Program-made: the position numbers and the translations under genes | The notes under the pieces: generated by a model | Databases searched by the model: none | Seen by the model: the letters and a program-made list of their open reading frames with translations, nothing else | Told to the model about the DNA's origin: nothing | Part shown: in pieces, positions 34,365-37,893 of the stretch | How positions within the stretch are numbered: the stretch's first letter is position 1 | Layout of the letters: each line of letters begins with the position of its first letter | Source: Rhodococcus oryzae | GTDB taxonomy: Bacteria; Actinomycetota; Actinomycetes; Mycobacteriales; Mycobacteriaceae | Reading direction: 5' to 3' | Length of the DNA stretch: 64,000 bases | NCBI RefSeq assembly: GCF_005049235.1 | Contig: NZ_SUMD01000002.1 | Location: 496,001 to 560,000, forward strand

Positions 34365-35159
34365 ATGGCGTCGATGAAATTCGATGCGACGGTCGATGGG
34401 TTACGACGATCGGCGACGGAGGCGGATCCGGCGGCCGGGGCTCTGGTGAGCCGGGCTGTGCGGCGGTATCGCGCTCCGGTGCGGATACAGGTGACCGGGC
34501 GCGCGGGGGTCGGTCGGTCCGCGGTCATCGCGGCGCTCGGTCCGGTGCAGGGGGCCGAGGTCGCGGAGACCCCCGCTTGGGACGTGCCGGGCGCCGAGGA
34601 CCCGGCATTGACCGCGGAGCTGATCCTGCTCGTGGTGTGCGACCCGCCGCGTCGCGCCGACGTGGCCGCGGCGGGCATCGCGGGGGATCGGGGGCTGGCC
34701 GTCCTGAACAAGGCGGACACGCTGGCCGACTCCGCTGTCGCCGCCGAGCGCGCCGCGGCGGTCCTCGGTGTGCCCTGTCTGCCCGTGGACAGTCGGTCGC
34801 AGTTCGGCGTGGCCGATCTGCGGATCGCGGTCACCGAGCGGCTCGGGGCCTGCCTGGCCGCCAGGGCAGCGGGGCTGTCGGCGGAGCTGCGGGCGCTGAT
34901 CGGGACCGCGAGCGTCCGCGACGCGGTGGAGGACTACCTGGCGTGCGACGAGGCGCTGACGGTCGCGGTCGCGGCGATCCTCCCGCAAGAGGGGGAGATG
35001 CAGGCGGAGCCGCCGCCGGACGATCCGGCTCTCGCGCTGCGTCGGGCCCGGACGTGGCGCGGCCGGATGAACGGCGGCTTCGACGCGCGCAGCACCAGGG
35101 CGGCCCTGACGCTGCACCGGAGTGCGGTTCGGCAGTGGGCCCGCGGGGAGGTCCGGTGA
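34365..35159 (+). CDS. GTPase-like protein A, possibly dynamin-related (Rv0209 position)
   Basis: A 264-residue P-loop protein. The G1 loop reads GRAGVGRS at 45-52, so the usual Walker A lysine is Arg51. The G4 motif NKAD is intact at 115-118 and VDSR follows in the G5 region. A helical tail from about 160 to 264 has no membrane segment. The pairing with protein B by GTGA overlap recalls tandem bacterial dynamins, but this is inference. GGGGGTGA precedes the ATG. In M. tuberculosis the genes here, Rv0209/Rv0210, are unnamed conserved proteins as I recall. Confidence 0.6.
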   Translation: MASMKFDATVDGLRRSATEADPAAGALVSRAVRRYRAPVRIQVTGRAGVGRSAVIAALGPVQGAEVAETPAWDVPGAEDPALTAELILLVVCDPPRRADVAAAGIAGDRGLAVLNKADTLADSAVAAERAAAVLGVPCLPVDSRSQFGVADLRIAVTERLGACLAARAAGLSAELRALIGTASVRDAVEDYLACDEALTVAVAAILPQEGEMQAEPPPDDPALALRRARTWRGRMNGGFDARSTRAALTLHRSAVRQWARGEVR

Positions 35160-36583
35160 ACGACACGGTGCCGCCGGAGTTGGCCGCCGTCCTGCGCCGG
35201 TGGAATCCCGGCGCGCTGGCCGGTCTGGAGCGGCCCGCGCCACCCGAGCCGGATCCGGGCGGCGCGGTGACGGTGCTGGTCCTCGGCGTGCCCGGCAGTG
35301 GTCGCGGCGATCTGATCGCTGCGCTCGCGGAGGCAGGGGCCGGGAGCCGCGAGCTGCGGTTCGCCGAGGCGCCAGATCCCGCGGCAGGCGTGGCCCTGAT
35401 GGTGCTCGACGCCGCGGCGCCGCTCGGTCGGGAGGAACTCGAACTGTTGCGGGACGGCGCCGAGTCCGCGCACACGGTGATCTTCGCGCTCACCGGGGTC
35501 GACGCGCACCACGACTGGGCGGCGGTCGCTCGGCGGAACACCGAGCTGCTCACCGAGTACCTGCCCCGGTTCGCGGGTGCCGTGATCCATCCGGTCTCGG
35601 TGCCGGGCGGTCGCGGCATCGAGGAGCTGCGTGCGGCGATCCTCGAGGCGACCACCGCCGTCCCCGAACGACAGGCACGGCTGCGCATGCGGGCCACGGG
35701 CGCGGCGGAACAGGCCGGGGCCCTGATCCGGGCCTCCGCCGAATCGCTGCGCGCGACCGACGACACCGCGGCGCTCCGAGCAGAGCGGTCCGCGCTGGTG
35801 GCAGACCGGGACGGGTGGCGCGGCGATCGGGCCGCGGTCCTGCGCAGGCTCACCGCGCTGGCCAGGGTGGAGCTGGTGCACGAGGTGAGCGACCAGGTAC
35901 GGGCGGAGTCCGCCGCGGCACGGGAGGCCATCGACCGAGCCGACCGCACCGCGCTGGCGGCATACCCGCAACACCTGCGTGACGCGGTCGCGGCGCTCAC
36001 CGCGAGGGTCGACGCGGCGGCGGATGCGCGCCTGGCCGAGGTCAGCGCGCAGGTGCTGGGTGCGGCGCTGACCGACGAGAACCGAACGCCGACGGTGCCT
36101 GCGATCGAGCCGCCCGCGCCGCGGCACCGTGGGCTCGAGGACCGGATGATGATCGTGTTCGGGGCGTCCGCCGGCCTGGGCCTCGGTCGGATGGTGATGG
36201 CTCCGCTGTCGACAGTGCCCGCGCTCGACCTCGCCAGCATCCCGGTGACCCTGCTGCTGGGCGGCGGCGCCGCGTGGTGGCTCACCCGGGCCCGCGGGCA
36301 CCTCGCCGATCGCGCGCACCTCCGTCAGTGGGTGGTGGAGACGCTTTCGGCGGTGCGGTCGGTGTTGGAGCAACGGGTGCTCGGCCGGCTGGTCGACACC
36401 GAGGCCAGGTGTGCGGAGGCGGTCCTGGCGAGGCATCGGGAGCGGACGCGCGAGTCCGAGGACCGGCTGGCCGCGCTCGATCGGCAGCTGCGTGAGCGTG
36501 CGGGCAGCAGGGCAGGGAAACTGGCCTCCTGCGACCGTGACCTCGCCGTGTTGGAGGCGTACGCGAGCGTCACCGTTCGGTAA
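35156..36583 (+). CDS. GTPase-like protein B with membrane hairpin, possibly dynamin-related (Rv0210 position)
   Basis: A 475-residue protein: a P-loop-like domain (1-170) with degenerate motifs, a helical region rich in Ala/Arg/Glu (about 180-320), a membrane hairpin at about 331-376 (MMIVFGASAGLGLG and LLLGGGAAWWL) and a charged coiled tail. The G1 loop is GVPGSGRGD at 44-52, so Lys is Arg50 and the Ser/Thr is Gly51. G4 reads TGVD at 113-116. It therefore probably binds nucleotide poorly or not at all. GGGGAGG precedes the GTG, which overlaps gene A. The domain order resembles bacterial dynamin-like proteins. Confidence 0.6.
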   Translation: MNDTVPPELAAVLRRWNPGALAGLERPAPPEPDPGGAVTVLVLGVPGSGRGDLIAALAEAGAGSRELRFAEAPDPAAGVALMVLDAAAPLGREELELLRDGAESAHTVIFALTGVDAHHDWAAVARRNTELLTEYLPRFAGAVIHPVSVPGGRGIEELRAAILEATTAVPERQARLRMRATGAAEQAGALIRASAESLRATDDTAALRAERSALVADRDGWRGDRAAVLRRLTALARVELVHEVSDQVRAESAAAREAIDRADRTALAAYPQHLRDAVAALTARVDAAADARLAEVSAQVLGAALTDENRTPTVPAIEPPAPRHRGLEDRMMIVFGASAGLGLGRMVMAPLSTVPALDLASIPVTLLLGGGAAWWLTRARGHLADRAHLRQWVVETLSAVRSVLEQRVLGRLVDTEARCAEAVLARHRERTRESEDRLAALDRQLRERAGSRAGKLASCDRDLAVLEAYASVTVR

Positions 36584-36656: not shown

Positions 36657-36956
36657 ATGATGCACGACGACATGCTGCTGCTCGGCACGCTCGGCCCCGC
36701 CCAGCACCCGATGGGCCCCGACGCCGGCGAGATGGAGCTGCACGCTCCCACCGCGGACCTGGACGGTGACGGGATCCTCGACACCAGGACCTACTCGACG
36801 GGCGGGACCCTGTACGTGGCCTCTGACCTGGACGAAGACGGGTTCGCCGATCACATCACCGCCATCGAGGGCGACGGTGGGTACGAGTCGTGGCATGCCA
36901 ACCGCGGGGCCGACGGCGAGGTCCTGTGGGCCAGGACTGACCACGGCAGCCTGTAG
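36657..36956 (+). CDS. Small acidic protein with EF-hand-like repeats
   Basis: A 99-residue acidic protein without signal peptide. Two loops, DLDGDGILDT (about 33-42) and DLDEDGFADH (about 55-64), match the calcium-binding DxDxDG pattern of EF-hand or dockerin-like loops. The protein is otherwise rich in Asp, Gly and His. I do not know its function. GGAAGGAG at 36641-36648 places the start at ATG 36657 (GTG codons at 36651 and 36654 are in frame). The gene is on the same strand as the GTPase-like pair, 73 bp downstream. Confidence 0.7.
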   Translation: MMHDDMLLLGTLGPAQHPMGPDAGEMELHAPTADLDGDGILDTRTYSTGGTLYVASDLDEDGFADHITAIEGDGGYESWHANRGADGEVLWARTDHGSL

Positions 36957-37176: not shown

Positions 37177-37893
37177 ATGTCTCACACCCCGATGCGCCGC
37201 GCTGCGGCAGTGGCCGCGTCTGCCGCCCTGGTTGCGACCGGCCTGACGGTCGGCCTGGGCGCCGGCACCGCCAGCGCCGCCGAGTGCAACCAGTCCAGCA
37301 CGGCCAGCAAGAACGACATCTCGACGTGGGGGATCACCCACAACTACTCCAAGACGGTCTCGGCCACCCAGGCCGCCCCGGGCACCCTCGTCACGTACAC
37401 GACGGTCGTCTCCACCACCGGCATCGGTAACCCGTATGTCAACACCATCAACGACATCCCGCCGGTGGGCTTCGGCGCGCCCGTCAAGGCGACCGTGACG
37501 GCGTTCTCGGTTGGCATCCCGACCGGCCAGCACGAGGCCGAGGTCACCCCCTCGGCGAACGGCGACGGCTGGAAGGTGACCAGCACCGGTTGGTTCGTCA
37601 ACTCCGGCAACCCGGTCACCCTGAAGACGACCTACAAGGTTCCGGCCAATGCCGCGCCCGGCTCGCAGATCACCAGCCGGGGCACCGGCGTCGCAGGCAC
37701 CGTCGGCGTCGGCACGGAATTGCCGAACCTGACCGCCTGCTTCACCGTGCGCATCCCTAACCCGGGTGAGGCCGTGCTCAGCGTCGCGGACGGCACCGGC
37801 ACCGGTTCCGCCGAGGGCCAGCTCAGCTCCACCGGCTCGATCAGCGACGTTCTCGGTGACACCATCACCAACGTCATCAACAACGGCAGCTAG
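37177..37893 (+). CDS. Secreted beta-rich (DUF11/Ig-like) protein
   Basis: A 238-residue protein with a Sec signal peptide: basic start, hydrophobic core, likely cut after ASA near residue 34. The mature part begins AECNQSS, is beta-rich and Thr/Val/Gly-rich with the look of an Ig-like or DUF11 repeat, and has two cysteines (AECNQ and LTACFTV) that could form a disulfide. The end is Gly/Ser-rich and carries no LPXTG anchor. It is preceded by 220 bp with possible promoter elements (TATAAA near 37061) and followed by a structured element. Confidence 0.7.
   Translation: MSHTPMRRAAAVAASAALVATGLTVGLGAGTASAAECNQSSTASKNDISTWGITHNYSKTVSATQAAPGTLVTYTTVVSTTGIGNPYVNTINDIPPVGFGAPVKATVTAFSVGIPTGQHEAEVTPSANGDGWKVTSTGWFVNSGNPVTLKTTYKVPANAAPGSQITSRGTGVAGTVGVGTELPNLTACFTVRIPNPGEAVLSVADGTGTGSAEGQLSSTGSISDVLGDTITNVINNGS

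What the first reader, a model, noticed from the sequence alone, without database searches (positions are those of the whole stretch)
34365..36583. Tandem GTPase-like pair with Walker A lysine replaced by arginine in both
Protein A has GRAGVGRS and an intact NKAD; protein B has GVPGSGRGD and a degenerate TGVD, plus a membrane hairpin and helical arms. The pair is coupled by a GTGA overlap and is divergent from mmpL3's operon. A nucleotide-handling subunit with a membrane-anchored pseudo-GTPase would be a new two-part membrane-remodelling or envelope-assembly device. This is my first candidate for an undescribed system.
Basis: partly seen in the sequence, partly recalled or inferred. Interest (0 to 1): 0.7.

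Follow-up and report, generated by a model that had tools for sequence, protein, structure and literature searches.

The report
Switch-less dynamin pair in mycolic-acid bacteria
Two neighbouring genes in a Rhodococcus are the shrunken descendants of a pair of membrane-shaping GTPases (bacterial dynamins); both partners have lost moving 'switch' parts needed to burn GTP, yet the pair is kept in most relatives examined, Mycobacterium included, so it probably works as a GTP-independent membrane scaffold.

Summary
In detail: A (34365-35159) and B (35156-36583) overlap by GTGA, lie divergent from trmB-NYN-mmpL3, and both have Arg at the Walker lysine. The Arg is not the main point. At the same place (between trmB and pckA) two early-branching genera of the family, and near pckA other families of the order, carry full-length versions of both genes: Dynamin_N GTPases with GKS, DTPG and mostly N/TKxD. 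Compared with these, A lacks switch I and most of switch II, and B lacks both; very roughly 90 residues are gone between G1 and G4. Of 157 loci with both genes measured, 140 are short/short, 17 full/full, none mixed; the species tree needs one change. The short genes are under purifying selection. In A the P-loop glycines, a mostly basic Walker position, the G3 aspartate and the G4 Lys/Asp are kept; in B these erode and the membrane hairpin is the best-conserved part. Best reading: a degenerate bacterial dynamin pair, unable to hydrolyse GTP in the usual way, serving as a hairpin-anchored scaffold or tether with a possibly still guanine-binding cap (A). The ancestry is firm; function is inferred. 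Structure prediction could not be run. New variant of a known kind.

The parts
34365..35159 (+). Gene A, 264 aa: short G domain plus C-terminal remnant, no membrane segment seen
   Evidence: profile match to full-length A of other families, prob 99.9, E 6.6e-38
34497..34520 (+). A, G1/P-loop GRAGVGRS (Walker Lys replaced by Arg51)
   Evidence: R or K at this place in 52 of 65 and 70 of 76 short-type A
34536..34556 (+). A, junction where switch I and its strand are missing relative to full-length A (approximate)
   Evidence: G1-G4 spacing 62 against 146-177
34581..34592 (+). A, G3 remnant DVPG (residues 73-76), aligned to DTPG of full-length A
   Evidence: Asp73 85% conserved in 46 short-type A
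34707..34718 (+). A, G4 NKAD (residues 115-118)
   Evidence: K116 0.89, D118 1.00
35156..36583 (+). Gene B, 475 aa: eroded G domain, helical arm, membrane hairpin, helical arm (arms inferred from the alignment to full-length B)
   Evidence: profile match to full-length B of other families, prob 100, E 4.2e-58, 472 columns; short-type B profile matches IniA, E 1.9e-10
35156..35159 (+). GTGA overlap of A stop and B start
35285..35308 (+). B, G1 relic GVPGSGRG (residues 44-51)
35333..35386 (+). B, junction where switch I and G3 (DTPG) are missing relative to full-length B (approximate)
   Evidence: G1-G4 spacing 61 against 145-151
35492..35503 (+). B, G4 relic TGVD (residues 113-116)
36137..36295 (+). 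B, membrane hairpin region (residues 328-380), most conserved region of B
   Evidence: (mean major-residue frequency 0.73 for 326-385 against 0.46 in the G domain)

Best explanation
A and B are a degenerate bacterial dynamin-like pair. Shown by sequence: (1) they descend from a tandem pair of full-length Dynamin_N GTPases that still sits at the same locus in early-branching relatives; (2) switch I (both proteins), G3/switch II (B) and most of switch II (A) were lost, in both genes, most simply on one branch of the tree; (3) the shortened genes are under purifying selection. Inferred: (4) without the switches the pair cannot run a GTP-driven power stroke; (5) B is held in the inner membrane by its hairpin and keeps the dynamin-type helical arms as a scaffold or tether; (6) A is a soluble cap that pairs with B's head and may still hold a guanine nucleotide without hydrolysing it, as in septin pseudoGTPases. 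So it would work as a constitutive, perhaps nucleotide-sensing, membrane scaffold near division or growth sites. My estimates: (1) 0.97, (2) 0.95, (4) 0.9, (5) 0.6, (6) pairing 0.7, guanine binding 0.5.
For: Full-length orthologues at the same locus with GKS, DTPG and mostly N/TKxD, Dynamin_N above cut-off in 4 of 4 tested. Co-linear profile matches of short to full-length forms from other families: B E 4.2e-58, A E 6.6e-38. Full-length B profile against IniA 8e-30, positions 38-613 to 19-598; short-type B alone against IniA 1.9e-10. G1-G4 spacing bimodal (A 41-100 against 146-177; B 53-103 against 145-151) and 140 short/short, 17 full/full, 0 mixed of 157 loci with both measured. One change on the species tree, SH-aLRT 99. 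Purifying selection. Hairpin the peak of conservation in B; G1 glycines and G4 Lys/Asp kept in A. Paired bacterial dynamins form hetero-oligomers and tether membranes (PMC6104087, passages); pseudoGTPase septins keep assembly roles (PMC10731463, passages).
Against: No structure, binding or localisation data; structure prediction never ran. The short-type B profile matches GTPase Der almost as well as IniA (1.2e-9 against 1.9e-10), so the direct dynamin signal in the short form alone is modest and the case rests on the full-length orthologues. A has lost much of its C-terminal part in the window (264 aa against about 490-510), so it may not keep a dynamin neck/trunk. Conserved G4 residues in A could be structural. 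The hairpin signature could equally be a docking site for another protein. That A touches B rests on adjacency and co-change only. The report of nucleotide-independent lipid mixing by DynA, a precedent for such work, is questioned in PMC6715688 (passage).
Confidence: 0.62

Rival explanations
1. A is a still-working guanine-nucleotide switch or sensor, and B is its membrane receptor: A binds GDP/GTP through the Arg P-loop, DVPG and NKAD and signals through B, with no membrane remodelling at all.
For: In 46 short-type A, G45, G50 and D118 are invariant, K116 0.89, D73 0.85; the Walker position stays basic in 52 of 65 and 70 of 76; G1 and G4 decay in B instead.
Against: Switch I is gone from the short-type A read, so a GTP/GDP conformational readout is hard to see; some genera lose the basic residue (V, C, A, T, G) and keep the gene.
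Confidence: 0.2
2. The pair is a protein-protein adaptor for the MmpL3 / cell-elongation machinery next door; the dynamin fold is just recycled scaffolding.
For: Place between trmB-NYN-mmpL3 and pckA in family loci; the NYN neighbour's orthologue Rv0207c binds MmpL3 (PMC6656915, passages).
Against: In six order-level full-length loci pckA is near but mmpL3 was not found in the fetched 15 kb (L057, L059, L063, L065, L068, L069; the rest of those genomes was not searched for it), so the mmpL3 neighbourhood may be inherited position only. The MmpL3 interactome text had no hit for Rv021, dynamin or MSMEG_02, and none of the 12 of 17 passages shown names Rv0209.
Confidence: 0.12
3. Decaying genes on the way out: pseudogenes without function.
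For: Loss of catalytic motifs; fast divergence; dN/dS 0.41-0.47 against the more distant R. spelaei and R. tukisamuensis; listed as non-essential in M. tuberculosis (PMC6306742, one table passage); Rv0210 is among five sites differing between two sets of tuberculosis isolates (PMC8415957, passages).
Against: Open frames in 24 of 31 genus codes of the family, dN/dS well under 1, invariant hairpin residues in 46 rows.
Confidence: 0.03
4. Anti-phage defence pair of the LeoBC kind.
For: Full-length A and B of L063 match PADLOC LeoA (2e-11, 2.4e-14) and LeoBC (4.4e-4, 1.6e-13), as dynamins in general may.
Against: The window's A and B match nothing in PADLOC at E<=0.01; fixed position beside pckA and a pattern that fits vertical inheritance are unlike a defence island.
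Confidence: 0.03

Closest known systems
IniA (mycobacterial bacterial dynamin-like protein, PDB 6J72/6J73)
   Same: Closest solved relative by sequence: full-length B profile aligns almost end to end; short-type B profile still matches it, with GTPase Der next
   Different: IniA has a canonical GTPase domain and mediates membrane fission (PMC6715688, abstract and passages); B has lost switch I/II and P-loop chemistry. The window's genome holds a separate adjacent pair with intact P-loops and DTPG (C23)
DynA/DynB of Streptomyces
   Same: Tandem dynamin-like pair; DynB has two membrane segments (PMC8748795, passages)
   Different: Orthology not shown: none of 60 class-level genomes matched the full-length B profile at E<=1e-60, a cut that also missed the window's own genome, so this shows little; of ten of them searched again, two matched at E<=1e-15 (2.4e-43 and 2.4e-18). 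Window pair lacks GTPase motifs
Campylobacter Cj-DLP1/2 pair
   Same: Side-by-side dynamin-like genes whose products form a hetero-oligomer that tethers membranes (PMC6104087, passages)
   Different: Cj pair hydrolyses GTP when assembled
Septin pseudoGTPases
   Same: GTPase-fold partners that lost hydrolysis but keep a role in ordered hetero-oligomers (PMC10731463, passages)
   Different: Eukaryotic septins, not dynamins; there some monomers lost hydrolysis, in some cases with substitutions in the pocket; removal of the switches from both partners is not what the passages describe

Membership tests
Bacterial dynamin-like proteins (dynamin superfamily) | Common descent with Dynamin_N GTPases | tested here: met
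   Co-linear profile matches to full-length forms; four full-length proteins tested score over the Dynamin_N cut-off; IniA match
Bacterial dynamin-like proteins (dynamin superfamily) | GTPase domain with G1 GxxxxGKS/T, G2, G3 DxPG, G4 N/TKxD | tested here: not met
   Walker Arg in both; switch I/G2 absent in both; G3 absent in B, relic DVPG in A; G4 intact in A only. Dynamin_N not among the Pfam matches at E<=0.01 of 46 A and 46 B short-type proteins
Bacterial dynamin-like proteins (dynamin superfamily) | Helical neck/trunk with membrane-binding tip | tested here: inconclusive
   B aligns co-linearly to full-length B through the arms and hairpin; no structure could be predicted (and later)
Bacterial dynamin-like proteins (dynamin superfamily) | Genes in side-by-side pairs | tested here: met
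   Both on one strand in 157 of 157 loci measured; A upstream of B in 155, downstream in 2 (the extra pairs L102, L104); 1991 nt apart in one (L067)
Bacterial dynamin-like proteins (dynamin superfamily) | GTP hydrolysis and membrane remodelling | not testable with these tools
   Needs purified protein
PseudoGTPases | G-domain fold with loss of one or more of G1-G5, function kept | tested here: inconclusive
   Motif loss and purifying selection shown; fold and nucleotide binding not tested
IniA/IniC | Orthology to iniA/iniC | tested here: inconclusive
   Homology to IniA shown; no tree was made. The own genome carries another adjacent pair with intact P-loops at C23; whether that is iniA/iniC is not shown
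DynA/DynB of Streptomyces | Orthology | tested here: inconclusive
   Two of ten class-level genomes matched at E<=1e-15, all unnamed
LeoABC defence-type dynamins | Match to PADLOC LeoA/LeoBC models | tested here: not met
   0 families for window A and B at E<=0.01; full-length L063 A and B do match

The most novel reading that the evidence does not exclude
On one branch early in the radiation of mycolic-acid bacteria, both members of a dynamin-like pair lost their switches together and were turned into a permanent two-part membrane scaffold: B a hairpin anchor, A a guanine-nucleotide-holding cap that never hydrolyses. It would be a lineage-wide 'pseudo-dynamin' pair, the first that I know of, kept beside mmpL3 in Mycobacterium, Nocardia and Rhodococcus.
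Probability: 0.35. Interest if true: 0.78.

Novelty: new variant of a known kind. Interest (0 to 1): 0.62.

Why it matters
Dynamins are defined by GTP-driven membrane work. A pair that lost its switches in both partners, most simply on one branch, and was then kept under selection across most of a family asks what a dynamin does without GTP hydrolysis. It also gives two uncharacterised genes next to a known drug target (mmpL3) an ancestry and testable predictions. The intact pairs in early-branching genera are natural controls.

Tried and rejected
Single-protein searches of Pfam and NCBIfam with A and B: no family over its cut-off, a few sub-threshold GTPase matches. Single-sequence search for A alone found it in 17 of 61 relatives; position and profiles were needed. 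One search reports a match in 401 of 401 family genomes at E<=0.001, but weak ones (for example genus code g3, mostly 1e-5 to 1e-12) may be other GTPases, so I do not count it as presence. The idea that the Arg itself is the story was dropped. Orthology to Streptomyces DynA/DynB was looked for and not shown. A defence role was tested and not supported. A link to mmpL3 could not be separated from inherited position. Some family hits show a 'stop inside'; I did not follow these beyond noting single long B frames for three of them among the fetched loci (L108, L109, L114). Structure prediction was asked for (one search was a wait), each time 'machine busy', so no model, no fold search and no A-B complex.

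Full report
What is there. A (34365-35159, 264 aa) and B (35156-36583, 475 aa) overlap by GTGA. They are divergent from trmB, an NYN-domain gene and mmpL3, and pckA follows downstream. The window lies in a 5.37 Mb genome. Three same-genus genomes have contigs of the same lengths as records named (G002 = Rhodococcus maanshanensis, G005 = R. spelaei, G003 = R. tukisamuensis), so I take the window as a Rhodococcus of that group (inference).

Same locus, two forms. A single-sequence search found B in 43 of 61 relatives. I read 43 regions of 10-15 kb, 42 round B hits and one round an A hit. In the family loci where trmB, B and pckA were all found, B lay between the other two. In two family genera (g12, g18; L052, L053 and L120, the last being the same contig as the named MAG L125) and in eight other families of the order with both genes measured, both genes are full-length: A about 490-510 aa in five trimmed examples, B 505-907 aa as extracted in eleven loci (L065 has an in-frame stop), with GKS, DxPG and mostly N/TKxD. 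All four full-length proteins tested match Pfam Dynamin_N over its cut-off (E 5.6e-16, 2.7e-18, 1.5e-13, 8.5e-16), while three short ones in the same call matched nothing. pckA lies downstream of B in six of the eleven order-level full-length loci fetched (L057, L059, L063, L065, L068, L069) and mmpL3 was not found in any of the eleven stretches, so the neighbourhood with pckA seems older than that with mmpL3 (inference; the rest of those genomes was not searched for mmpL3).

What was lost. In the window's proteins the stretch between G1 and G4 is 62 (A) and 61 (B) residues, against 146-177 and 145-151 in full-length forms. Over all loci read, short forms span 41-100 (A) and 53-103 (B; 103 is one outlier, L162), with nothing between these and the full-length values. 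In the window the DNA between the motifs is that short too, so no frameshift hides the missing part. In A, switch I is gone and most of switch II; DVPG (residues 73-76) aligns with DTPG of full-length A. In B, switch I and DTPG are both gone. Homology is not in doubt: profile-profile comparison of 46 short B with 9 full-length B from other families gives probability 100, E 4.2e-58 over 472 co-linear columns, and of 46 short A with 8 full-length A gives 99.9, E 6.6e-38 over 334 columns. Dynamin_N is not among the Pfam matches of the 46 short A and 46 short B proteins; a few match other P-loop families weakly, eight A the RsgA GTPase.

Both at once. Of 84 unnamed-set entries (window included), both genes could be measured in 79: 64 short/short and 15 full/full; of 80 named loci, 78: 76 and 2. 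Of these 157, none was mixed. Not counted because one or both were cut or unmeasured: L044, L060, L061, L078, L103, L134, L169. These are loci, not independent species: the two sets share organisms (L037 and L138; L120 and L125), and the 17 full/full include two extra pairs away from the locus (L102, L104) and one Nonomuraea pair (L175) whose neighbourhood I did not check. By genus code, 24 of the family's 31 codes have short pairs and two have full pairs at the locus; five (g3, g5, g14, g15, g28) were not measured or only in part; g9 and g27 have in addition a full-length pair elsewhere. On a tree of 38 rows from pckA, trmB and NYN the form needs one change, SH-aLRT 99 (quick method, no bootstrap; one row, L059, is mostly gaps and four end branches are long). 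The full-length family genera branch first, so loss on one branch is the simplest history.

The Arg. The Walker position in short-type A is Arg in 46 of 65 (unnamed) and 52 of 76 (named), Lys in 6 and 18, other in the rest; in short-type B it is Arg in 10 of 65 and 10 of 77, Lys in 11 and 18, with V (19) commonest in the unnamed and T (36) in the named set. Full-length forms have Lys in 15 of 15 A and 17 of 17 B (unnamed) and 2 of 2 each (named). So Arg is seen only in short forms and does not define them. In A the position stays basic in 52 of 65 and 70 of 76, in B in 21 of 65 and 28 of 77.

What is kept. In 46 short-type A, G45, G50, D118 and R167 are invariant, K116 0.89, D73 0.85, P75 0.80, Walker Arg 0.61. 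In 46 short-type B the hairpin region (326-385) has mean major-residue frequency 0.73, the G domain 0.46, arms 0.48 and 0.52, and 12 of the 17 invariant columns fall in the hairpin region. The window's B has a moderately hydrophobic region at 331-372, A none above the same threshold. dN/dS against R. maanshanensis is 0.27 (A) and 0.19 (B), against trmB 0.03, NYN 0.07, pckA 0.10, mmpL3 0.21 and the gene at 37177-37893 0.52; against R. spelaei and R. tukisamuensis A and B rise to 0.41-0.47 with dS 0.76-1.1, above all neighbours there (simple NG86 counts). So the pair is constrained but fast.

Closest solved relatives. The full-length B profile finds IniA (E 8e-30, positions 38-613 to 19-598) and BDLP (3.3e-14); a full-length A finds BDLP (9.2e-8), 5owv (3.7e-5; 'GTP-binding protein', by recall the Campylobacter pair) and IniA (2.9e-4). 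The short-type B profile alone finds IniA first (1.9e-10, entering it only at residue 164, beyond the missing part) and GTPase Der next (1.2e-9), with weaker GTPases after. The window's genome also has another adjacent pair with intact P-loops and DTPG at C23; by recall this looks like the iniA/iniC type, not shown.

Mycobacterium. Genus code g29 is taken as Mycobacterium because its mmpL3 matches solved MmpL3 chains (mycobacterial, by recall) at 1377 bits, against 750 for g6. Eleven g29 loci all have short/short pairs, with A GRxGxG and NKAD in 9 of 11, and B GPWL/MAG. By position these correspond to Rv0209-Rv0210 (recalled; PMC9363015 names the Rv0208c:Rv0209 interval, passages). A search for either name listed 7 papers. 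I saw passages of three: a table marks both non-essential (PMC6306742); Rv0210 carries one of five sites differing between two sets of tuberculosis isolates and is called hypothetical protein there (PMC8415957); the Rv0208c:Rv0209 interval is in association lists (PMC9363015). None of these passages speaks of dynamins; the other four I did not open. Searches for 'bacterial dynamin-like' with 'pseudogtpase' and dynamin with Rhodococcus and MmpL3 returned none; the library is open-licence papers only.

How it likely works. A Campylobacter dynamin pair needs both partners for activity and tethers membranes (PMC6104087, passages). In Streptomyces the two DynB membrane segments seem needed to bind SepX (PMC8748795, passages). 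[quoted passage not shown] Septins show that GTPase-fold partners can lose hydrolysis and keep an assembly role (PMC10731463, passages). On this footing I infer a hairpin-anchored, hydrolysis-free scaffold or tether, with A as a cap that may still bind guanine nucleotide. That the loss is never seen in one gene alone is the best evidence here that A and B act together. What they act on is unknown; the mmpL3 neighbourhood is weak evidence for envelope work.

Limits. No structure prediction ran (queue full at every try). Named loci are the best 80 of 160 found with a query whose first row was a full-length family B, so they favour Rhodococcus and Nocardia.

Noticed in passing
window 36657-36956 +: Small protein of 99 aa between B and the gene at 37177, a DUF6802 family member (E 1e-27).
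   Followed up: partly
window 37177-37893 +: Fast-evolving protein with a signal-like start (by eye) and no Pfam match, dN/dS 0.52 against R. maanshanensis.
   Followed up: no
L102, L103, L104 (genus codes g9 and g27): Full-length dynamin-like genes away from the pckA locus in genomes that also carry the short pair (G225, G243, G158); in L102 and L104 the A-like gene lies downstream of B.
   Followed up: partly
G000:C23:20320-22478 (L080, L081): Adjacent pair of Dynamin_N proteins with intact P-loops (638 and 564 aa frames) in the window's own genome.
   Followed up: partly
L142, L163, L168, L179, L180, L183 (Hoyosella, Lolliginicoccus): Short-type A with Val at the Walker position and G/ARAD at G4, that is, nucleotide-site features lost in A as well, while B keeps TKTD.
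   Followed up: no
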